Shown one piece after another: positions 38,307 to 48,307 of a stretch of DNA of 64,000 nucleotides. Source of the DNA: Wenzhouxiangella sp. XN201 (GTDB lineage: Bacteria; Pseudomonadota; Gammaproteobacteria; Xanthomonadales; Wenzhouxiangellaceae). Below the pieces are notes generated by a model. That model made no database searches, was not told where the DNA came from, and worked only from the letters and a program-made list of their open reading frames with translations. The stretch covers positions 310,001-374,000 of the forward strand of contig NZ_JAAIVI010000017.1 of assembly GCF_011008905.1 (NCBI RefSeq), written 5' to 3'. How positions within the stretch are numbered: position 1 is the stretch's first letter; each line of letters begins with the position of its first letter. Both the position numbers and the translations under genes were made by a program.

Positions 38307-38404
38307 GGACAGCGCGTCCTTTCTGTTCTCGGGGATCCAATACAGACGCATCATCGCATGATCCGCATTTGCCCGGCCTGTCCCATCGGTCATATCATCG
38401 GAAT

Positions 38405-39748
38405 ATGAGCTTTCGTGCAATTTCCAACTGGCTGGGTTTGTTACCGGACGCAAGCAGTACCGTCCCGGAGGAGCGTGTCGGTCGTCATCCCGGGCGTCCT
38501 TGGCGCGCCGACGAGATGGTGGCCATGATCCACGAGGTGACCGCGCCCCTGACCGGCGGCGACTATTTCCGGGCCCTGGTCACGCGTCTGGCCCAGAGCC
38601 TGGACGTTCACGCTGCCCTGGCAACGGAATGCCTGGAGTATCCCGAAAACCATGTCCGCACGCTCGCCTTCTGGGAAGGTGAGGGTGTGGCCGAGAACAT
38701 CGAGTTCGATCTGGTTGGAACGCCGTGCGAGGAAGTGATCCACGGCGGCGCCTTCTGCTTCTATCCCGACGATCTTTCCAGGCGCTTTCCGGAGTGGGCG
38801 GCTGAGGAAGGGAGTCCCGAGAGTTTCATCGGTATTCCGGTGCTGGCGCCGAGCGATGGACGGACCCTCGGCCATATCGCGGTCTACGGTCGCAAGCCGA
38901 TGTCCGAGGATGCCGTGGTCGAATCGATGTTTCGCATCATTGCCGCGCGCGCTGGCGCCGAGATCGAGCGCTTGCAGGCCGAGCGAGCCCTGCGCGACAG
39001 CGAGGCTCGGGCACGGCAACACCTGGCTGAGTTGGCGCATGTTTCCCGGCTGGGTTCGATGGGCGAATTGGCCTCGGCACTGGCCCACGAAGTCAACCAG
39101 CCACTGACCGCGATCATCACCTACAGCCAGACCCTGCAGAAAATGCTCGATCAGGGCCGGCTTGCTGAAGACGACCTGCGCCAGGGCCTCGATCGGTCTC
39201 TGAAAAGTGCGCAGCACGCGCGGCAGGTCGTAAGCAAGCTGCGCACGTTCATCAAGCGTGGTGAGATGAAGCCGCGGCCGGTTCCCGCAGCCCATCTCGT
39301 CAGGGAATGCCGGGTGTTGCTGGAAACCGAGGCGCGCCACCATCACGTTCGGTTGGAAATTTCCGCGCCGGAGGAATTGCCGACCGTGCGCGTCGACGCG
39401 GTGCTGATCCAGCAGGTCATCTTCAACCTGGTCAGAAACGGCATCGATGCGATCAACGACAGTGACAATCCGCGCCGCGAACTTTGCGTTGATGCCCGCA
39501 CCGAGGACGAGCAGGTCGTCATCTGCGTCCGCGACACCGGCAAGGGTGTGGATGCAAGTCTGGGCGAGCGCCTGTTCGACCCGTTCGTGAGCACACGCAA
39601 GCAGGGCCTGGGGATCGGTCTGTCGCTGTGCCGCTCGGTGGTCGATCGTCACCGCGGCCGGATTTGGGTCGAGAATACCGAAGGTCCGGGGGCGACCTTC
39701 TGTTTCAGCCTGCCGATCCATCGTGCCATGGCCGCTGTCGAGGACTGA
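38405..39748 (+). CDS. GAF-domain sensor histidine kinase, FixL-like transmitter
   Basis: This protein is about 447 residues and appears soluble. Residues ~35-200 look like a GAF sensor domain (FRALVTRLAQSLDVHAALATECL through SFIGIPVLAPSDGRTLGHIAVYG). A short coiled region (EIERLQAERALRDSEARARQHLAEL) links it to the transmitter. The transmitter has the phospho-accepting His in ELASALAHEVNQPLTAI, N box NLVRNGIDAI, G1 DTGKG and G2 KQGLGIGLSLC. The ALAHEVNQPL form is that of FixL-type kinases that pair with FixJ-type regulators. Such a regulator is encoded convergently at 40824-41483, beyond the IS insertion. Sensed signal is unknown. Confidence 0.88.
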   Translation: MSFRAISNWLGLLPDASSTVPEERVGRHPGRPWRADEMVAMIHEVTAPLTGGDYFRALVTRLAQSLDVHAALATECLEYPENHVRTLAFWEGEGVAENIEFDLVGTPCEEVIHGGAFCFYPDDLSRRFPEWAAEEGSPESFIGIPVLAPSDGRTLGHIAVYGRKPMSEDAVVESMFRIIAARAGAEIERLQAERALRDSEARARQHLAELAHVSRLGSMGELASALAHEVNQPLTAIITYSQTLQKMLDQGRLAEDDLRQGLDRSLKSAQHARQVVSKLRTFIKRGEMKPRPVPAAHLVRECRVLLETEARHHHVRLEISAPEELPTVRVDAVLIQQVIFNLVRNGIDAINDSDNPRRELCVDARTEDEQVVICVRDTGKGVDASLGERLFDPFVSTRKQGLGIGLSLCRSVVDRHRGRIWVENTEGPGATFCFSLPIHRAMAAVED

Positions 39749-39782
39749 TCCCGGGCAGCTTTCGAGCCTGTCTTCGAAGCTC

Positions 39783-39788
39783 CTTAAA
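39783..39788. repeat. Target-site duplication, left copy
   Basis: The sequence CTTAAA directly precedes the left TIR and is repeated at 40823-40828 after the right TIR. On the minus strand it contains TAA, used as the transposase stop codon. Confidence 0.85.
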
Positions 39789-40737
39789 TGTGCAGTCTCA
39801 GCAGGTTGTCCCCGGACAGCCCTAAGCGGCTGATGGGGGTTCGTCCACCGATGCCGCCGTGGCGTCGGTGCCAGTTATAGCGATGTACCCAACGTGGCAG
39901 CTCTGCTGCCCGGATCTCGCTCGTATTGTAGCTGTGACCGTAAGCCCACTCTCGGATTGCGGTCTGGATGAAGCGCTCGGCCTTGCCGTTGGTCTGTGGC
40001 GAGTAAGGCTTGGTGCGCCTGTGTTTGATGCCCAGGCGTCGGCAGCAGCGGGCGAACTGGTAGCTCCGGTAGCAACTCCCGTTGTCGGTCAAGATCCGCT
40101 CGATACGCACGCCCAGTGACCGGAAGTAGCGCACCGTGGCGATCAGCGCCCGCCACGCAGTGGCCGAGGTCTCATCAGGCCACATCTGGATTTGACCGAC
40201 GCGACTGTGATCATCGATGGCGACGTGCGCATGCTCCCAGCCGATGCCCTTGGAGTCTTTGCGGGGCATCCCGGTCACCCGGTGACCGGGCACGCGGAAG
40301 CGCGCCAGTTTCTTGATGTCGAGGTGCACCAGGGCGCCGGGATGTGGATGCTCGTAGCGTTGGACAGGCGGCTTGGGATCTAACTCCGAGAGCAGATTGA
40401 GGCCGTGGGCTGCCAGAATCCGAGCAACCGTTGCCCGGCTGACCTTCTCGCGACGGCCGATCTCGGCCATCGTCAGCCGGTCCTTGCGGCGCAGGCGACA
40501 GATTCGCCTGATCACGGCTCTAGGCGTGCGATGAGGGCAGTTGCGAGGACGGCTCGAGCGATCTTCCAGGCCGCACGGGCCCTCGGCCTTGTAGCGAGCC
40601 ACCCAGCGGGAAACCGTCTTGGGATCGACGTGATAGGCGGCGGCCGCTTGCCGCTGGCTCCAACCTGAATCGATCACCAATTTGACCAGCCCCTCTCGAC
40701 CTCGCGGCGTTAACTTGGCATTCTTGTGTATGTCCAC
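39784..40737 (-). CDS. IS481-family transposase
   Basis: This 317-residue protein has an N-terminal helix-turn-helix region (GWSQRQAAAAYHVDPKTVSRWVARY) and a second basic HTH. The rve-type catalytic domain follows with D140 (LVHLDIKKL), D218 (RILTDNGS) and E254 (TNGKAERFIQT), 35 residues between the last two. The start is GTG with AAGGAGG 5 nt upstream. The last codon and the TAA stop are completed by the left target duplication, outside the IS itself. The gene looks functional. Confidence 0.95.
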   Translation of the reverse strand: MDIHKNAKLTPRGREGLVKLVIDSGWSQRQAAAAYHVDPKTVSRWVARYKAEGPCGLEDRSSRPRNCPHRTPRAVIRRICRLRRKDRLTMAEIGRREKVSRATVARILAAHGLNLLSELDPKPPVQRYEHPHPGALVHLDIKKLARFRVPGHRVTGMPRKDSKGIGWEHAHVAIDDHSRVGQIQMWPDETSATAWRALIATVRYFRSLGVRIERILTDNGSCYRSYQFARCCRRLGIKHRRTKPYSPQTNGKAERFIQTAIREWAYGHSYNTSEIRAAELPRWVHRYNWHRRHGGIGGRTPISRLGLSGDNLLRLHI

Positions 40738-40822
40738 TCGGACCTCCTTGACTGAATGATGAGCTCGACACCCATCAGTCTGTCTTGGACGGTCCGTGTG
40801 GACAACCTACTGAGAGATCACA
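39789..40822 (-). mobile_element. IS481-family insertion sequence, intact, 1034 bp
   Basis: It is bounded by 23-bp imperfect terminal inverted repeats (39789-39811 and 40800-40822, 19 of 23 identical). Both begin TGTG and share TCTCAG and AGGTTGTCC. The flanks are a 6-bp duplication CTTAAA. One transposase gene fills it. The element sits exactly at the 3' end of a FixJ-like response regulator gene, between that gene and the kinase. The intact frame, clean ends and duplication point to a fairly recent insertion. Confidence 0.92.
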
Positions 40823-40828
40823 CTTAAA
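40823..40828. repeat. Target-site duplication, right copy
   Basis: The sequence CTTAAA directly follows the right TIR. On the minus strand it provides the TAA stop of the response regulator gene (40824-40826), which shows that the insertion target was this stop codon. Confidence 0.85.
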
Positions 40829-41483
40829 GCAGCCAGTCGCGGTAGCTGTGACTCGACAGCACCATCCGGATCATTTCCGAACTGTTGCGCGCGCCGAGTT
40901 TGTCGAGCGCGTTGGCGCGGTGGATCTCGACGGTGCGCACGCTGATGTCGAGATCATCGGCGATGATCTTGTTGAGCTTGCAGTCCAGGATCCCTTCGAC
41001 CACCTGGCGTTCGCGCGGTGTCAATGCAGCGATGCGCTGCTCGATGTCGTCGCGTTCGTGTTCGTTCTCCCAGTCGGACTGGTCCAGATCGAGGGCGTTG
41101 CGGACCTTTTCGAGCAGTAGTTCGTCGTCGAATGGCTTTTCCAGAAAATCCAGCGCGCCGGCCTGCACCGCGCGCACGGCCGTGCTGATGTCGGCATGAC
41201 CAGAGATGAAAATTACCGGCAGTCGAATGCCTCGTTCGTTGAGCGCCTGCTGGGCCTGCAGACCGTCGAGGCCGGGCATGCGCACGTCGAGCAGAATGCA
41301 GCCGCGGTGCTGAGGTGAGACCATCTCGAGCAGCTCGTCGGCGGTCGCACAGAGCAGGTGATCGAGCTGCTCCGACTGGAGCAGGAAGCCGATCGCATCC
41401 CGTACTGATGCATCATCGTCGGTAACGAAGACGCAGGGTGCGTAAGTGCGTTCGGGCTGGCTGCTGGTCGGCACGTTGTTCAC
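40824..41483 (-). CDS. FixJ/NarL-type response regulator
   Basis: This 219-residue protein has an N-terminal receiver domain (acidic VTDDDAS, phospho-Asp in CILLDVRMPGLDGL, Thr/Ser switch FISGHAD, Lys in FLEKPFDDELLLEKV). A C-terminal LuxR-type HTH follows (LTPRERQVVEGILDCKLNKIIADDLDISVRTVEIHRANALDKLGA). This is the FixJ/TodT layout and it should activate promoters when phosphorylated, probably by the kinase at 38405-39748. It overlaps the DoxX gene by 4 bp. The coding sequence remains complete because the IS duplicated its stop codon. Confidence 0.93.
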   Translation of the reverse strand: MNNVPTSSQPERTYAPCVFVTDDDASVRDAIGFLLQSEQLDHLLCATADELLEMVSPQHRGCILLDVRMPGLDGLQAQQALNERGIRLPVIFISGHADISTAVRAVQAGALDFLEKPFDDELLLEKVRNALDLDQSDWENEHERDDIEQRIAALTPRERQVVEGILDCKLNKIIADDLDISVRTVEIHRANALDKLGARNSSEMIRMVLSSHSYRDWLL

Positions 41484-42463: not shown

Positions 42464-45400
42464 ATGGCGGCCACCCAAGGGAGACAATTCGGTCAAGCGC
42501 TGGCTGCGCTCTTTGGCGCGGCGATGGGGGTGCGGGAGTGGCCGAGGGCCTTGGAACAGCTGGCCGGGCTGACCCGAACACGCTGCATTAAGCTCGATAC
42601 CGTTCGCCCGCAGATGGGCGAGACAGGCAGGCACGGGCGGCAGCGGGGATGGGGCCCCCAAGCCCCTTCCGAAAACCGGGGAGGGTGGATTTCCCTGGAC
42701 AAACTCTCTTGTTTCTTGCTGATCGGGGTGCTCTTCGTCGCCGCTGCATCTCCCGCTGAAGCCGCACCGACTCGACGACCAGTGGACAACCCGGCTCCGG
42801 GCCCTGAGGACGCTGCCGCCATCTTTCTCGGGGACGGAACCAGCCAGCGGATCTTCGCCGTCGATGGCGCGGGGGACGTCAATGGTGACGGCATTGCCGA
42901 TGTGGTGGTGGGGGCTCGGGAAAGTCTCTCGGGGTCCGGCGAGATCTGGGTGATCTTCGGACCCGTCACCGGCGATGTCGCGCTGGCCACTGTGGCGCAG
43001 CCGGACGGCATTCCCGGAATCCGGATCATCGGGGGCGCCGATGACGGGGAGGTGGTGACGGCAGCAGGGGACATGAACAACGACGGCTACGATGACGTCT
43101 TGATACTGGGGGCCCACGAGCCCGACGGCTACGTTGTCTTTGGAGGGACCGAAAGCCGGACCGTCGACCTGGGGGACATTGCTCTTGCAGGTGGCAACGC
43201 CGACGGCTTTCTCATCACCAATGGTGGCACCGCCATCGCCAGCGGCGGTCAGCGGGAAGTTGACGCTATTGGGGACTTCGACGGCGACGGCTACGACGAC
43301 ATCGCCGTGTTGGGCGGTTCCTATGACCTCTTTGTCGTCTACGGCGCCGCCGAGTCGCGAGCCATCGACCTCACGGGAGCCGTGTCGGGAGACGAGAGTC
43401 GAGCCACGCGCCTGATCGTCGCCGAGACCTCCGGCTCAGAGTTCTTCAGCGCCGTCGCCGGGGCCGGGGACACCGACGGCGACGACTTCGATGACCTGTT
43501 CGTGGGTCTTCCCTCGATGGAGTCGGGCCGCGGCGCTGCTTTCCTCGTTTACGGTCAAGCCGATCGCACCTCCCGTAACATCGCAGATGGCGAGGCCCTG
43601 CGGATTCAGGGTGACCTCTACACCTCGCTGGGTAAGGACGTGGCAGGGATCGGCGACCGGACCGGCGACGGCGTCGGCGAGCTGGCGGTGGTCTGGGGTC
43701 GGATCCCTTGGGACGGGCAGTATGCGGAGGACCTGAAGAACCGGGTGACAATCCACGACGGCACCAATCTTGCCACCCTGGCCACGTTCGAGGGTGTCAT
43801 CGGAACACCGATCCTATGGATCGACGATGCCGGGGATCTTGACGGCGACGAGCGCGGGGATTTGGTGATCGTGCTGCAGCACACCGCCGACGGTAACTAC
43901 TTTCAGTCGGCCCATGCCATCCTTGATCCCCTTCACGGTGGCATCGTGCCCGATCTCGACGCCACGAAGCGCTGGCACGTGACCAGCCAGACCAAAGCCT
44001 ACACTGGTGGCCTCGGCGATGTCACCGGCGACGGGCTGGCCGACCTCGGTCTCGGCGATTGGAAGGCATCTCCCGACGGCGTCTCCGACGGCGCCGCCTT
44101 CGTCTATGCTGGACAGATTCGCCCCTACGGCCTGGAGCCACCGGAGCTTGACTTGACGCCGTCGCCCGCCGGCACGCTCGAGGTCGTCCGCGTGCTGGTC
44201 CACGCCGATGACACCGGATCTGGGGACACGGTGATCACCGGGACCGAAGTCCAGGTTGACTCTGGCGAGTGGCTACCTCTTGAGGCCCAGGACGGCGCCT
44301 ACGACGAGGTAATCGAAACCGGGGAGGGCACACTCTCGTTCAACACCGTGGGTACTCGACGCATCTGTGCCCGGGCCTTCGACACCGAGGGTGATGAGAG
44401 CGGCCACTCCTGTCAGGATCTGGAGGTGGTGTCCAGCGACGGTCCCGTCCTTCGGGCGATCGAGGTCAACCAGACCATCCAGACCTGGAGGAACACCATC
44501 CCGCTTTACGAAGGCAAGGATACCGTGGTGCGGGTCTTCTTTGAAACCGGCGGACCGACCAGCCCCACCGAGATGACCGGACTGCTCCATGGTACTGCCA
44601 GCGGTGAGGCCCTCTCCGGAAGCCCGCTCGAGCCGGTGAACGGTCCTGTTGCCGTCGTCGAGGACGCCTCGGTGCTTGACGACCCGGACACGGACAAGAA
44701 CGAATCCGTGCGAGCAGATCCGGACGGCAGCCTCAATTTCATTTTGCCCCGCTCGTGGACGAAGCCCTCAAACCAAGTCCTGGAGCTTTCCTTCGAACCC
44801 TCCATCACCTCTGGCCTTACCTGCGCCGAGCCCGACGGCAAGCCGGATTGTGTCGACGTTGTTGTCTTTGAGGCGCCGGACCGCCCCATCGCCGAGTTCG
44901 TTTCGATACCTTACGACTCGAACGAGGTCCGGGCGCTTCGCCGCAGCGACGATGCCGCCGGGACCTTCAAGCTGGTCAGCGACGGGGATTTCAGCGATGC
45001 CCTCGACGTCGAGGCGACCGCCGAAGAGGTTGAGGGTGCCGTTGAAGCGGTGCTGGGCGCCCGGGACGGACGGGTGATCGTTGATGGGCGCAACGAGGGA
45101 TACGACATAATCACATTGCGAGGAAAGCACGAAGACCTGACCCTGAATACATCCGGATTGACGGGCGGGGCGATAACACTGGAGATCACCCAGCTCGGTG
45201 GGGAGTTCACCGCACCGGGGGAGCGGGAGTTGCGGGAGCAGCGGCTGCGGGTCACCGACGCCTTCCCGACGGATGTGGTGGACTACCGCTACCGCGACGT
45301 CGGCAGTTTCAATCGAGCTCCGACCCTGCTCAAGGCAAATCGCCGCCTGGCCAATATGCGCTGGATGGACCGCAGCCTGAACCCGGTCCGCTACCCGCCC

Positions 45401-46921
45401 AATCTGCGCAGTTGGGGCTTCCTGCGCCACCGCTGGCCGACCTCTACAAAATCTGGCATGGCTTTGCTGAAGACCGCAGCGACCTACCTGAACGGTTTCG
45501 GTCTGCCCGGTGACGGAGGCCGCCCCCGCAACATCGGCGTGCACGAGGCTGCCCACAACTACGGGCGGGCCCACGCGGTGGTTGAGCACCAGGGCGCGAA
45601 CTCGGTCGGGATCTGCGGCTCGAAGTATAGTCGTTTGGCCTCGAACCTCCATCCCTGGGTCGAGGAGATTCCGGGCGTGGAGAACGAATCGGCCACCGAG
45701 GATAAGTGGGAGTTCACCTGGCCGACCATCGGTCCTCTCGGCGCCGGCGTGGACGAGGAGGTCTGGGGCTTCTCGCCCCGAGCCTATGAGAGCGGTTTTG
45801 AGCACCTGGCTGTCGTGGATCCCCGCCAAAGCACCGCGCTGATGTCTTATTGCAACGCGCCGGATGCTGGCCAGGATCGCTGGCCGTCGACGTACACCTA
45901 TCAGCGGCTGCGGGAGGTCCTGGCTAACGCCGGCGAGCCTGCGGGCGCCACGGAAACGGAATCCACGCTTTCCCGCGGAGAGCTCGAAGAGTTCATCCTC
46001 GTCTCCGGAAGCGTCGATGCTATCGACGGAACCCTTGTCATCGAGCCCGCCGTCCGTTTGCTCGGCATGGACCAACCTTACGAGGCCGGAGACGTCAGTG
46101 TCGCTCTCGTTGACGGCTCCGGGGCCGAGATCGCCTCGCGGAGCGTCGCTCTTCTGCTGGATGGGGATCATGAGAACCTGCAGTTCGGGCTCGGGCCAGA
46201 GGACGGTTTTTTCTTCGCCGCCGTCCCCGTTCCCGCGGCCACGGAGCCGGCGGGTCTCGTCGTCACTGATACGACAACTGGCGAGTCTGCTTCTCTTGGC
46301 GCCTCGCCCAATCCCCCGACCGTTTCGATCACCTCGCCGGCGCCCGCCTCGACGGCGAGCGGTGCCATCGCGATCGAATGGGACGCGGAAGACGCGGATG
46401 GTGACCCCCTAGAAATCACAGTGCTCCTGAGCTACGACGACGGGGCGACCTGGGAAACCCTGGCCATGGGCCTGGAAGGAGGTGCCTCCTTCGACGCCCC
46501 GACGCGTTTCCTTGCCGCCAGTCAGACTGCCAGGGTGAGAGTCCTGGTCAGCGACGGCTTCCACACTGCCGAGGCCACCTCCGGGGCCTTCGAGATAGAC
46601 GCAGGGGCCCCTCATCCGGGGATCACCATGCCCGCCAATGGCGCCACCGTGGTGGCAGGTGCCCCCATGATCCTTCGGGGCGACGCCTGGGATCCCGAGG
46701 AAGGTCGCCTCGCCGGCACGGCCCTGGAGTGGAGCTCCGACCGGGACGGCATCCTTGGCACCGGAGAAACGGTTGCACTGGACAACGGCCTCTCCCTCGG
46801 TTCCCACCAGATCACCCTCACGGCGACCGACTCCGATGGTCGTACCGGATCGACGACGTCGAGCGTCGTTGCCGGCACCGGATTGGACCTCATCTTTGCC
46901 GACGATTTCGAGGTGCACTGA
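42464..46921 (+). CDS. Secreted metzincin-type metalloprotease with FG-GAP beta-propeller and Ig-like domains
   Basis: The frame encodes 1485 residues. Seven FG-GAP-like units (for example GAGDVNGDGIADVVVGA, AIGDFDGDGYDDIAVLGG, GLGDVTGDGLADLGLGD) lie at about residues 135-550, enough for one seven-blade propeller. A beta domain with VNQTIQTWRNTIPLYEGKDTVVRVFF follows. A catalytic region carries HEAAHNYGRAH at 1027-1037, an exact HExxHxxGxxH metzincin site, with a possible Met-turn ALMSYC (M1127). Two Ig-like domains and the terminal LIFADDFEVH complete it. It resembles M66-type or other secreted metalloproteases but I cannot name the family. The start is uncertain. The signal peptide KLSCFLLIGVLFVAAASPAEA begins near 42700, and CTG 42695 has GGGGAGGG 9 nt upstream. 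The first ~77 codons may not be translated. Confidence 0.85.
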   Translation: MAATQGRQFGQALAALFGAAMGVREWPRALEQLAGLTRTRCIKLDTVRPQMGETGRHGRQRGWGPQAPSENRGGWISLDKLSCFLLIGVLFVAAASPAEAAPTRRPVDNPAPGPEDAAAIFLGDGTSQRIFAVDGAGDVNGDGIADVVVGARESLSGSGEIWVIFGPVTGDVALATVAQPDGIPGIRIIGGADDGEVVTAAGDMNNDGYDDVLILGAHEPDGYVVFGGTESRTVDLGDIALAGGNADGFLITNGGTAIASGGQREVDAIGDFDGDGYDDIAVLGGSYDLFVVYGAAESRAIDLTGAVSGDESRATRLIVAETSGSEFFSAVAGAGDTDGDDFDDLFVGLPSMESGRGAAFLVYGQADRTSRNIADGEALRIQGDLYTSLGKDVAGIGDRTGDGVGELAVVWGRIPWDGQYAEDLKNRVTIHDGTNLATLATFEGVIGTPILWIDDAGDLDGDERGDLVIVLQHTADGNYFQSAHAILDPLHGGIVPDLDATKRWHVTSQTKAYTGGLGDVTGDGLADLGLGDWKASPDGVSDGAAFVYAGQIRPYGLEPPELDLTPSPAGTLEVVRVLVHADDTGSGDTVITGTEVQVDSGEWLPLEAQDGAYDEVIETGEGTLSFNTVGTRRICARAFDTEGDESGHSCQDLEVVSSDGPVLRAIEVNQTIQTWRNTIPLYEGKDTVVRVFFETGGPTSPTEMTGLLHGTASGEALSGSPLEPVNGPVAVVEDASVLDDPDTDKNESVRADPDGSLNFILPRSWTKPSNQVLELSFEPSITSGLTCAEPDGKPDCVDVVVFEAPDRPIAEFVSIPYDSNEVRALRRSDDAAGTFKLVSDGDFSDALDVEATAEEVEGAVEAVLGARDGRVIVDGRNEGYDIITLRGKHEDLTLNTSGLTGGAITLEITQLGGEFTAPGERELREQRLRVTDAFPTDVVDYRYRDVGSFNRAPTLLKANRRLANMRWMDRSLNPVRYPPNLRSWGFLRHRWPTSTKSGMALLKTAATYLNGFGLPGDGGRPRNIGVHEAAHNYGRAHAVVEHQGANSVGICGSKYSRLASNLHPWVEEIPGVENESATEDKWEFTWPTIGPLGAGVDEEVWGFSPRAYESGFEHLAVVDPRQSTALMSYCNAPDAGQDRWPSTYTYQRLREVLANAGEPAGATETESTLSRGELEEFILVSGSVDAIDGTLVIEPAVRLLGMDQPYEAGDVSVALVDGSGAEIASRSVALLLDGDHENLQFGLGPEDGFFFAAVPVPAATEPAGLVVTDTTTGESASLGASPNPPTVSITSPAPASTASGAIAIEWDAEDADGDPLEITVLLSYDDGATWETLAMGLEGGASFDAPTRFLAASQTARVRVLVSDGFHTAEATSGAFEIDAGAPHPGITMPANGATVVAGAPMILRGDAWDPEEGRLAGTALEWSSDRDGILGTGETVALDNGLSLGSHQITLTATDSDGRTGSTTSSVVAGTGLDLIFADDFEVH

Positions 46922-47026: not shown

Positions 47027-47101
47027 TGGTGGGCGATGCTGGGTTCGAACCAGCGACCCCTGCCGTGTGAAGACAGTGCTCTCCCGCTGAGCTAATCGCC
47101 C
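47027..47101 (-). tRNA. tRNA-Val (CAC)
   Basis: This is a 75-nt cloverleaf on the minus strand. The acceptor stem is GGGCGAT / ATCGCCC, the D arm GCTCAGCGGGAGAGC, and the anticodon stem CTGTC / GGCAG with loop TTCACAC (anticodon CAC). The T arm is GCTGG-TTCGAAC-CCAGC and CCA is encoded. The terminator at 46974-47002 lies downstream. Confidence 0.96.
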
Positions 47102-47515: not shown

Positions 47516-48307
47516 ATGAAACCAAGCCGTTCAGTGATGTTGGCTGGCATGGTCGCAGCAACAGTTCTTATTTGCGTCAGCTGCGCCAGTGACATTGGCA
47601 GCATGCGTGGATTGTCACCCGTTGACCCCGATTTCGTTCCGGGGCAATTGCATGAGCCAGATCCGCTAACTCGATCTCGGGCAGAAGTTGGCGATGTCAT
47701 GCTTGAAGCAGGAGAGTTTGATTATCGTCCTCCTTCAAATAAGTACCCGGCAATAACCATTGATCCACAGCCGGAGCTCGAAGTTGAACACAAGCGACAT
47801 GTTTTTCGATTTCCCCTTAAAGCTGGTCCGTATAAGTTGGTCGCTGAATCAAGCCAGGGAAAGTACTATCGGTACTTAACGCCGTTCGGATCGCGTAAGG
47901 CATACGGCGGTCTATTTGTTCCAACGGGACAGGATGTTGCAACTGACTTCTTTTGGTGGTGGTACGCCCGCGACCGCGATGAGGATTTAGTTCCTGCCAA
48001 TGTCTATTCAGTTCCTCTCCCCAACCCAGTTGAGGTGACCCATACGGAACATCTAGAGCCGCGTGACGGTTCTCGCGGGCGGAGCTCGGGCCCCACAGCA
48101 ACTCTTACATATGCCGGCGTTGCAGCTGGCGAGATTAGGTTTGTGTACAAGGAATTCACTGAACGAGGCATGGCACGTCCGGCATTTACTCAGGAGGTGA
48201 TCTTGGACTATAACCCAGGTGAAACGTACGCCTACAAGAGTGCAAGATTCGTTGTTCACGAGGCGGGCACTACTCACATTCTGTATACCTTGCTTGAAGG
48301 CTTATAG
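47516..48307 (+). CDS. Hypothetical lipoprotein of distinct base composition
   Basis: This 263-residue protein has signal peptide MKPSRSVMLAGMVAATVLICVSC with the lipobox cysteine at residue 23. The mature part is beta-rich and polar: a SNKYPAITIDPQPELEVEHKRHVFRFPLKAGPYKLVAES block, an aromatic patch TDFFWWWYARDRDED, and a C-terminal YAYKSARFVVHEAGTTHILYTLLEGL. I recognise no family. Codon use and composition are visibly more AT-rich than all neighbours, which suggests acquisition by transfer. GGGAG lies 10 nt upstream of the ATG, and a good -35/-10 pair precedes it. It stands alone between tRNA-Val and the convergent RND gene. Confidence 0.8.
   Translation: MKPSRSVMLAGMVAATVLICVSCASDIGSMRGLSPVDPDFVPGQLHEPDPLTRSRAEVGDVMLEAGEFDYRPPSNKYPAITIDPQPELEVEHKRHVFRFPLKAGPYKLVAESSQGKYYRYLTPFGSRKAYGGLFVPTGQDVATDFFWWWYARDRDEDLVPANVYSVPLPNPVEVTHTEHLEPRDGSRGRSSGPTATLTYAGVAAGEIRFVYKEFTERGMARPAFTQEVILDYNPGETYAYKSARFVVHEAGTTHILYTLLEGL

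What the first reader, a model, noticed from the sequence alone, without database searches (positions are those of the whole stretch)
42464..46921. Giant secreted metzincin fused to a seven-unit FG-GAP propeller
The protein joins an N-terminal integrin-like propeller, an exact HExxHxxGxxH site (HEAAHNYGRAH) and two Ig-like domains. The order propeller-then-protease is not one I can match to a named peptidase family. The zinc motif context HNYG recalls M66-type mucin proteases, which would imply a glycoprotein target.
Basis: partly seen in the sequence, partly recalled or inferred. Interest (0 to 1): 0.6.

Follow-up and report, generated by a model that had tools for sequence, protein, structure and literature searches.

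The report
Propeller-armed secreted zinc protease
A bacterium, probably of the Lysobacterales, encodes a very large and probably secreted zinc protease joined to an integrin-like propeller; it belongs to a scattered protease family, related to known mucin-cutting enzymes, that the family libraries searched here do not yet model.

Summary
ORF 42464-46921 (+) carries seven FG-GAP calcium loops, an intact HEAAHNYGRAH zinc site (1027-1037), a Met-turn at exactly M1127 and Ig-like C-terminal domains. Pfam and NCBIfam do not name the protease part. Eighteen relatives from Pseudomonadota, Planctomycetota and Verrucomicrobiota show a recurrent core: beta-sandwich, metzincin, often a further beta-rich domain and Ig-like domains. 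Over 19 proteins the Glu and second His of HExxH and the Met never vary. Family profiles hit metzincins in PDB. L026, which Pfam calls M66, aligns over N-domain, protease and C-domain (hhalign 99.1; one M12B-like control 4.4); StcE is the only one of 50 listed rows with over 110 residues aligned to a low-confidence model. Best reading: a diverged M66-related metzincin. A glycoprotein substrate is plausible, not shown; HNYG is no evidence, as it varies in the family. None of the 18 relatives shows FG-GAP. AlphaFold models were too weak to prove the fold (pLDDT 42 and 48).

The parts
42464..46921 (+). ORF of the propeller-metzincin protein (1485 aa from the ATG; the frame stays open upstream, 1492 aa)
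42680..42697 (+). GGAGG and in-frame CTG at 42695, the likelier start than the ATG at 42464
   Evidence: read; inference
42698..42763 (+). signal-peptide-like hydrophobic segment, residues 79-100
   Evidence: read; no signal-peptide predictor was run
42815..44122 (+). seven-repeat FG-GAP / integrin-alpha-like propeller, residues about 118-553, one calcium-type loop per repeat
44129..44428 (+). probable Ig-like linker domain, residues about 556-655, two Cys (635, 650)
   Evidence: sequence reading; no library match
44444..44872 (+). N-domain before the protease, predicted beta-sandwich, residues about 661-803, motif ExVxQxxQxxxNxxxLxxxKxTxxR
   Evidence: alignments; strands in the low-confidence model of the relative L018
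44930..45205 (+). insertion of about 92 residues (823-914) early in the catalytic module; in A4 five of the six other rows have at most 3 residues there and L022 about 30, loosely aligned; resembles a segment of an 11,649-aa open frame in G014
   Evidence: (40% identity, E 1.1e-6)
44873..45958 (+). metzincin catalytic module, residues about 804-1165 (includes the insertion)
45542..45574 (+). zinc site HEAAHNYGRAH, residues 1027-1037
45614..45616 (+). Cys1051, possible disulfide partner of Cys1130
   Evidence: in part against
45842..45853 (+). Met-turn MSYC, residues 1127-1130
45881..45901 (+). conserved W-x-S-x-Y-T-Y motif after the Met-turn, residues 1140-1146
   Evidence: W in 17 of 19 aligned proteins
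45986..46312 (+). C-terminal beta-rich domain shared with most of the nearer relatives, residues about 1175-1283
46313..46603 (+). Ig-like domain 1 (Big_7), residues about 1284-1380
46604..46879 (+). Ig-like domain 2, residues about 1381-1472
   Evidence: alignment with L011
46889..46918 (+). C-terminal tail LIFADDFEVH, similar to the tails of three relatives from one Lysobacterales genome

Best explanation
It is a secreted, very probably active zinc endopeptidase of the metzincin clan, from a family related to M66 (StcE) that Pfam and NCBIfam do not model. Sec export, then probably the type II secretion system, releases it. The N-terminal seven-bladed, calcium-stabilised propeller works as a binding arm that brings the enzyme to an extracellular protein or glycan. 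The beta-sandwich before the protease packs against the catalytic domain, as the Ig-like domain of StcE does (recalled). His1027, His1031 and His1037 hold zinc, Glu1028 activates water, and Met1127 closes the base of the site. The C-terminal beta-rich and Ig-like domains form a stalk, and the short tail may be a sorting signal. Shown here: the motifs, their family-wide conservation, the profile match to metzincins, the domain order. Inferred: activity, export route, role of the propeller, substrate.
For: Zinc site and Met-turn intact. In 19 aligned proteins Glu1028, His1031 and Met1127 are invariant, and His1027 and Tyr1129 are kept in 18. Family profiles against PDB sequences hit serralysins, adamalysins/ADAMs, fragilysin and TACE; with A6 the 60 rows shown (of 61) are metzincins as I read their molecule names, and serralysin 1akl aligns at the zinc helix (20.9 bits) and in a second, weak segment at MSY (4.5 bits, not significant alone). 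A4 against L026, which Pfam calls M66 (42.4 bits, cut-off 20.6): hhalign probability 99.1, E 4.7e-19, 389 columns; against L029 99.7 (334 columns) and L027 96.7 (97 columns around zinc site and Met-turn only); the one control, M12B-like L043, 4.4. StcE (3ujz, rank 12) aligns over 218 residues of the L018 model (Z 6.1, rmsd 5.8, model 2-312); the other 49 listed rows align 110 residues or fewer, though some of their ranges also reach into the catalytic part. GspD is encoded in the genome (449 bits, and 535 bits for a second locus counted with its neighbouring segment; cut-off 351). Seven calcium-type loops.
Against: The window protein alone matches no peptidase model and no metzincin chain in PDB by phmmer. 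Both AlphaFold models are of low confidence (mean pLDDT 42.4 and 47.9), lowest in the catalytic part; Foldseek gave nothing at E 0.001 or better and StcE is not among its 50 rows shown; Z 6.1 lies in the range the tool calls middling, and eleven rows that match mainly the beta-sandwich rank higher. The single-sequence PDB search with L026 gave CpaA, not StcE. In the tree the window branch is long (1.76) and its placement weak (65/82). Start codon and signal peptide rest on reading only. No substrate evidence.
Confidence: 0.72

Rival explanations
1. It is a glycoprotein-selective protease (mucinase-like, as StcE and CpaA are): the protease cuts O-glycosylated stalks and the propeller binds their glycans.
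For: Relation to M66 through L026 and the StcE row. L026 by itself finds the glycoprotease CpaA in PDB (E 0.0072); CpaA and StcE are type II secreted metzincin glycoproteases (PMC7542363, passages). A relative, L066, carries DUF346 repeats (six stretches) after its protease-like domain, which a lectin survey reads as a PLL-like lectin (PMC7778903, one passage).
Against: No substrate data. HNYG is variable in the family. L066 has Gln in place of the first zinc His, so it is probably not an active protease. The propeller of integrin alpha binds mostly protein ligands (recalled).
Confidence: 0.3
2. It is a general nutrient-scavenging or matrix-degrading protease of an environmental bacterium, cutting broad protein substrates; the propeller and Ig domains are generic adhesion modules swapped among relatives.
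For: N-terminal modules differ in relatives: NxxGxxAF repeats (L011), PKD (L018), LamG, Calx-beta, DUF11 and CarboxypepD_reg (L019), InlB-type repeats plus LRR (L026), nothing named in several others. Three genomes hold 3, 4 and 5 contigs with matches to the family.
Against: The N-domain next to the protease is recognisable in most relatives, so part of the accessory architecture is constrained.
Confidence: 0.4
3. It is a processing protease that acts on the producer's own surface or exported proteins (maturation, shedding, biofilm release) and not on foreign substrate.
For: The short C-terminal tail shared with three proteins of one Lysobacterales genome could be a cell-surface sorting signal.
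Against: Of 43 genomes searched in its family only its own has a match, which suggests an accessory and not a housekeeping role. Neighbour genes of the relatives were not compared, so conserved partners are neither shown nor excluded.
Confidence: 0.12
4. The protein is a catalytically dead adhesin that keeps the metzincin fold.
For: Dead-looking relatives exist: L066 has QEVSH, and L060, L063 and L065 lack the third His at the usual place.
Against: All zinc ligands, the Glu and the Met-turn are intact in the window protein; reading frame without stops.
Confidence: 0.06

Closest known systems
Peptidase M66 / StcE-TagA family (PF10462)
   Same: Extended HExxHxxGxxH site, Met-turn, a beta-sandwich before the catalytic domain (StcE row), type II secretin in the genome, alignable relative L026 that passes the Pfam cut-off.
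   Different: The window protein does not match PF10462 (none at E up to 1; none in G000 at E 1e-4). Arg follows the motif Gly position in 12 of 19 family rows, the window included; StcE has Leu there (recalled). N-terminal FG-GAP propeller and C-terminal Big_7 domains are not StcE features (recalled).
CpaA (M72 glycoprotease of Acinetobacter)
   Same: Secreted metzincin with Ig-like beta domains in front of the protease (PMC7542363, passages); found by L026 (E 0.0072) and weakly by A4 (E 0.31).
   Different: Four tandem Ig-like repeats in CpaA (same passages) and no propeller; no direct match with the window protein.
Serralysins (M10B)
   Same: Zinc helix, and weakly the Met-turn, align with the family profile.
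   Different: No RTX-type Pfam match in the window protein; different flanking domains.
Integrin-alpha / bacterial FG-GAP propellers
   Same: Seven repeats with DxDxD-type loops, Pfam FG-GAP over cut-off, weak match to integrin alpha-V.
   Different: Joined to a metzincin, an order seen in none of the 18 relatives (some of which are incomplete at the N terminus).
Mep72 of Pseudomonas aeruginosa
   Same: Secreted metzincin with C-terminal binding domains (PMC4334185, passages).
   Different: Metzincin at residues 46-175 with CBM-like domains after it; the FG-GAP mention in that paper is about another protein, PA5033.

Membership tests
Metzincin clan | HExxHxxGxxH/D zinc site | tested here: met
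   HEAAHNYGRAH at 1027-1037; 18 of 19 aligned proteins keep His1027, 19 of 19 Glu1028 and His1031, 15 of 19 His1037
Metzincin clan | Met-turn downstream of the zinc site | tested here: met
   M1127, invariant in 19 of 19; colinear with MSY of serralysin in the profile alignment as a weak second segment of 4.5 bits
Metzincin clan | Catalytic-domain fold | tested here: inconclusive
   AlphaFold2 pLDDT 42.4 (window core) and 47.9 (L018 core); Foldseek none at E 0.001 or better; StcE row Z 6.1
Peptidase M66 (PF10462) | Match to the Pfam model over its cut-off | tested here: not met
   No match at E up to 1; no match in G000 at E 1e-4 in the genome search
Peptidase M66 (PF10462) | Homology over N-domain plus catalytic domain with a PF10462 member | tested here: met
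   A4 (7 rows, the window protein among them, L026 not) against L026: probability 99.1, 389 columns; one control 4.4. Caution: the M12B-like L043 also passes the PF10462 cut-off at 26.4 bits, so the cut-off alone is a loose criterion
Peptidase M66 (PF10462) | Mucin-type glycoprotein substrate | not testable with these tools
   needs purified enzyme
M72 (CpaA) | Sequence match to CpaA | tested here: inconclusive
   L026 alone E 0.0072, A4 E 0.31, window protein alone none
M10B serralysin | RTX calcium repeats at the C terminus | tested here: not met
   no such Pfam match at E up to 1
M12B reprolysin-like | Pfam reprolysin models; similarity to an M12B-like protein | tested here: not met
   no match for the window protein at E up to 1; hhalign probability 4.4 with L043. 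Three relatives (L022, L026, L027) have sub-threshold reprolysin matches
FG-GAP / integrin-alpha propeller | Seven repeats with calcium-type loops | tested here: met
   FG-GAP 40.1 bits; loops at 138, 203, 271, 336, 398, 458, 519
Type II secreted protein | Signal peptide and a T2SS in the genome | tested here: inconclusive
   GspD present; signal-like segment by eye only; dependence on T2SS not testable here

The most novel reading that the evidence does not exclude
The 19 proteins represent a peptidase family not modelled in Pfam or NCBIfam, spread over at least three phyla, with a core of beta-sandwich and metzincin that contains or borders M66, and with exchangeable aiming modules. In the window protein an integrin-like propeller has become the aiming module and a domain of giant-adhesin type has been inserted into the catalytic module, giving a protease whose specificity is set by two added binding domains.
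Probability: 0.35. Interest if true: 0.55.

Novelty: new variant of a known kind. Interest (0 to 1): 0.42.

Why it matters
Glycoprotein-cutting metzincins such as StcE and CpaA are known mainly from host-associated bacteria and serve as tools (partly recalled). The core described here occurs in MAGs of Planctomycetota and Verrucomicrobiota and in several gammaproteobacterial families, with different binding modules and, in some, altered zinc ligands. That gives a natural series for asking how accessory domains set specificity. Of the 19 proteins only one (L026) has a peptidase match over its Pfam cut-off, so such proteins can escape annotation as proteases; the one annotated record seen here calls its copy a hypothetical protein.

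Tried and rejected
Structure prediction of the window core (A5, 5 rows) and of L018 (A7, 5 rows): pLDDT 42.4 and 47.9; not used as proof of the fold. Absence of other metzincins from the VIA list is not evidence, since only Foldseek's top chains are aligned.

Searches without relatives: plasmids and phages with the window protein, viral contigs with the window protein and with L029. A viral-contig pattern scan for HExGHxxGRxH gave 10 loci; the ORFs over the matches were read by eye: none shows the N-domain, five (L031, L032, L035, L036, L037) are small proteins with an HExGHxxGRxH-type site, the other five matches lie in unrelated frames.

The order search had five further hits at E 0.0027-0.0091 beside the own genome and G442: two were opened (L012, L013) and by eye show no such protease; three were not opened. 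In the 200-genome order search with PF10462 two genomes rang: L043 is reprolysin-like by eye, L044 gave no ORF of 300 aa at the match.

Counts of absence are lower bounds: in the searches of about 300-400 genomes often only three candidates per genome were scored.

HNYG as a marker of M66: rejected, the motif varies inside the family. tRNA-Val attachment-site duplication: only one 14-base repeat elsewhere in the window (27159), judged chance. Disulfide Cys1051-Cys1130: in A6 7 of 10 proteins have a Cys within 22 residues after the third His and Cys at Met+3; of the 3 without Cys at Met+3 two have no Cys in that stretch and one (L021) has a Cys elsewhere. Against it, in A8 two rows (L058, L061) have the first Cys without the second. 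Left as a possibility.

Papers: listings for FG-GAP with metzincin, propeller and metalloprotease terms, M66/StcE terms and a genus guess with metalloprotease (not used further) describe no such fusion in what was shown. Only open-licence PMC papers were searched. Of four papers I saw passages only (PMC4334185, PMC7542363, PMC7778903, PMC10847046); the last is not used. None was read whole.

Full report
What is in the sequence. The ORF at 42464-46921 (+) encodes 1485 residues from an ATG. Numbering below is from that ATG. A hydrophobic signal-like segment lies at 79-100, and a GGAGG stands 10 nt before an in-frame CTG at 42695 (read). I take that as the likelier start; it is an inference. The propeller (about 118-553) has seven D-x-[DNTR]-x-D loops; Pfam FG-GAP is over its cut-off and integrin alpha-V chains are found at E about 0.001. 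HEAAHNYGRAH is at 1027-1037, the only such motif in six frames of the window, and MSYC starts at 1127. One C-terminal Ig-like domain passes Pfam; the second aligns with a relative.

No library names the protease. Pfam and NCBIfam list no peptidase family at E up to 1 for this protein, and phmmer against PDB finds only integrins at E up to 1.

Relatives. Searching with the core of the protein found one clear relative in 299 genomes of the order (G442, whose contig has the same length as JASJDM010000061.1, a Lysobacterales MAG that one search found with the same match), none in the other 42 genomes of its family, two further ones in 369 genomes of the class and two further ones in 398 of the phylum. 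The Lysobacterales placement of the window genome rests on G442 being of the same order. A scan of genome contigs gave four loci: the Lysobacterales one, one of Sedimentisphaerales, two of Verrucomicrobia. A plasmid of Mycetohabitans holds a compact version. Searching eight of the genomes behind these loci showed matches on several contigs in three of them; nine more ORFs were read. In all there are 18 relatives: L017 (=L011), L018, L019, L020, L021, L022, L026, L027, L029 and L058-L066. Several of the last nine were brought in by partial matches, and L020 and L061 look incomplete at the N terminus.

The shared core. Alignment A4 (7 rows) shows a module with ExVxQxxQ...N...L.....T..R, then the zinc site, then MxY and W-x-S-x-Y-T-Y, then another beta-rich domain. 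In the wide alignment A8 (19 rows) Glu1028, His1031 and Met1127 are invariant; His1027 and Tyr1129 are kept in 18; Trp1140 in 17; His1037 in 15; Arg1035 in 12. Four rows depart at the third ligand: L060 (Ala), L063 (Asp), L065 (Asp), L066 (Trp; it also has Gln for the first His). Conservation peaks on the expected catalytic residues.

It is a metzincin by profile. hmmsearch of PDB with A4 gave 47 distinct sequences at E up to 10, all metzincins as I read their names, best E 0.0076. With A6 (10 rows) the best E was 0.00029, and serralysin aligned at the zinc helix (20.9 bits) and again, weakly, at MSY (4.5 bits). With A8 the best was 1.8e-5; 154 distinct sequences at E up to 1, of which 60 were shown: 59 of these bear names of metzincins known to me and one is called NPCBM/NEW2 domain-containing protein. 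Most of these matches are short stretches around the zinc helix. The alignments were made by me from hits, so they are not independent of the motif; the match of zinc site and Met-turn in order is what counts.

Kinship with M66. L026 matches Pfam M66 at 42.4 bits (cut-off 20.6). A4, which does not contain L026, aligns with it at probability 99.1, E 4.7e-19, over 389 columns that include most of the N-domain and the C-terminal domain. L029 gives 99.7 over 334 columns and L027 96.7 over 97 columns around the zinc site and Met-turn. The control, an M12B-like protease L043, gives 4.4; it is a single control. L043 itself passes the M66 cut-off at 26.4 bits, so the cut-off alone is loose. L026 finds CpaA, not StcE, in PDB (E 0.0072). 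In the model of L018 (pLDDT 47.9, pTM 0.50) the structural neighbours align mainly to the first beta-sandwich; StcE, rank 12, aligns over 218 residues, model 2-312 (Z 6.1, rmsd 5.8), the other 49 rows over 110 or fewer. This is weak by itself and agrees with the sequence bridge. The tree of 18 rows (L061 left out as truncated) is not resolved around the window protein (65/82).

What sets the window protein apart. None of the 18 relatives has an FG-GAP match (threshold E 1 in the first three and 0.01 in the last two). Their N-terminal parts carry NxxGxxAF repeats, PKD, LamG/Calx-beta/DUF11/CarboxypepD_reg, InlB-type repeats with LRRs, or nothing named. L066 carries DUF346 repeats behind its protease-like domain, which LectomeXplore reads as PLL-like lectin (PMC7778903, passage). 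The window protein also has an insertion of about 92 residues (823-914), probably between the first strand and the first helix of the catalytic domain, judged from the alignment and a low-confidence model; it resembles a stretch of an 11,649-residue open frame in G014 (40% identity, E 1.1e-6).

Surroundings. Upstream on the minus strand lie a DoxX protein, a response regulator and an IS481-type transposase; downstream a tRNA-Val, an orphan gene and an RND permease. GC3 of the gene (0.769) is like five neighbours (0.754-0.786), the orphan gene being the exception (0.481). So there is no compositional sign of recent arrival, although no other genome of its family that was searched has it. Two GspD loci over the NCBIfam cut-off are in the genome.

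Mechanism. Shown: the domain order, intact catalytic residues, family conservation. Inferred from the families involved: zinc-dependent hydrolysis with Glu1028 as base, packing of the N-domain on the protease, Sec plus type II export, propeller as calcium-dependent binding arm. Not shown: substrate. A glycoprotein target is one of three substrate readings that the evidence leaves open.

Verdict. A real and, by its residues, intact protease of a known clan, from a family related to M66 and without a model of its own in Pfam or NCBIfam, with a domain order not seen in its relatives: a new variant of a known kind, of moderate interest.

Noticed in passing
window 46889-46918; L011 ORF 3502-7599; L063 ORF 1327-5619; L064 ORF 1711-4668: The window protein and three family members of one Lysobacterales genome end in a short tail with [DN][GD]FE (FADDFEVH, YSDGFEQ, LRDGFE plus 11 residues, FANGFEG). 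In the verrucomicrobial L058 a similar YANGFEG opens a longer C-terminal part. Possible sorting signal or relic of a domain; no other frame of 80 aa or more in the window ends so.
   Followed up: partly
window 44930-45205; L028 1043-1318 (G014): The stretch inserted in the protease resembles a segment of a giant 11,649-aa open frame of another bacterium; Pfam does not name it.
   Followed up: partly
window 47516-48307: Orphan gene with GC 0.518 and GC3 0.481 against about 0.61-0.65 and 0.75-0.79 in its neighbours; no Pfam match, no match in the other 29 genomes of the genus. Likely foreign; lies beside tRNA-Val 47027-47101.
   Followed up: partly
window 38369-41483: An IS481-type transposase gene (39787-40737, minus) sits between a histidine kinase gene and a LuxR-type response regulator gene, which may be an interrupted two-component locus.
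   Followed up: no
L066 1651-4089: Family member with QEVSH in place of HExxH and DUF346 (PLL-like lectin) repeats at the C terminus: looks like a protease turned binding protein.
   Followed up: partly
L060, L063, L065: Family members with altered third zinc ligand (HEMNHNLDRSA, HELNHNLDGAD, HEIGHTQGFGD), the first two with a His some residues later.
   Followed up: no
L029 2884-4125 (Mycetohabitans endofungorum plasmid NZ_CP132745.1): The compact N-domain plus metzincin core, annotated hypothetical, lies near genes annotated as Dyp-type peroxidase, LodA/GoxA family CTQ-dependent oxidase and tryptophan 7-halogenase.
   Followed up: no
G1038, G1039, G1036: Matches to the family on 5, 4 and 3 contigs, so the family is expanded in two verrucomicrobial MAGs and a Lysobacterales MAG.
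   Followed up: partly
L031 965-1402, L032 5214-5720, L035 2153-2620, L036 7750-8823, L037 248-823: Viral contigs encode small proteins with HExGHxxGRxH-type sites that do not look like members of this family.
   Followed up: no
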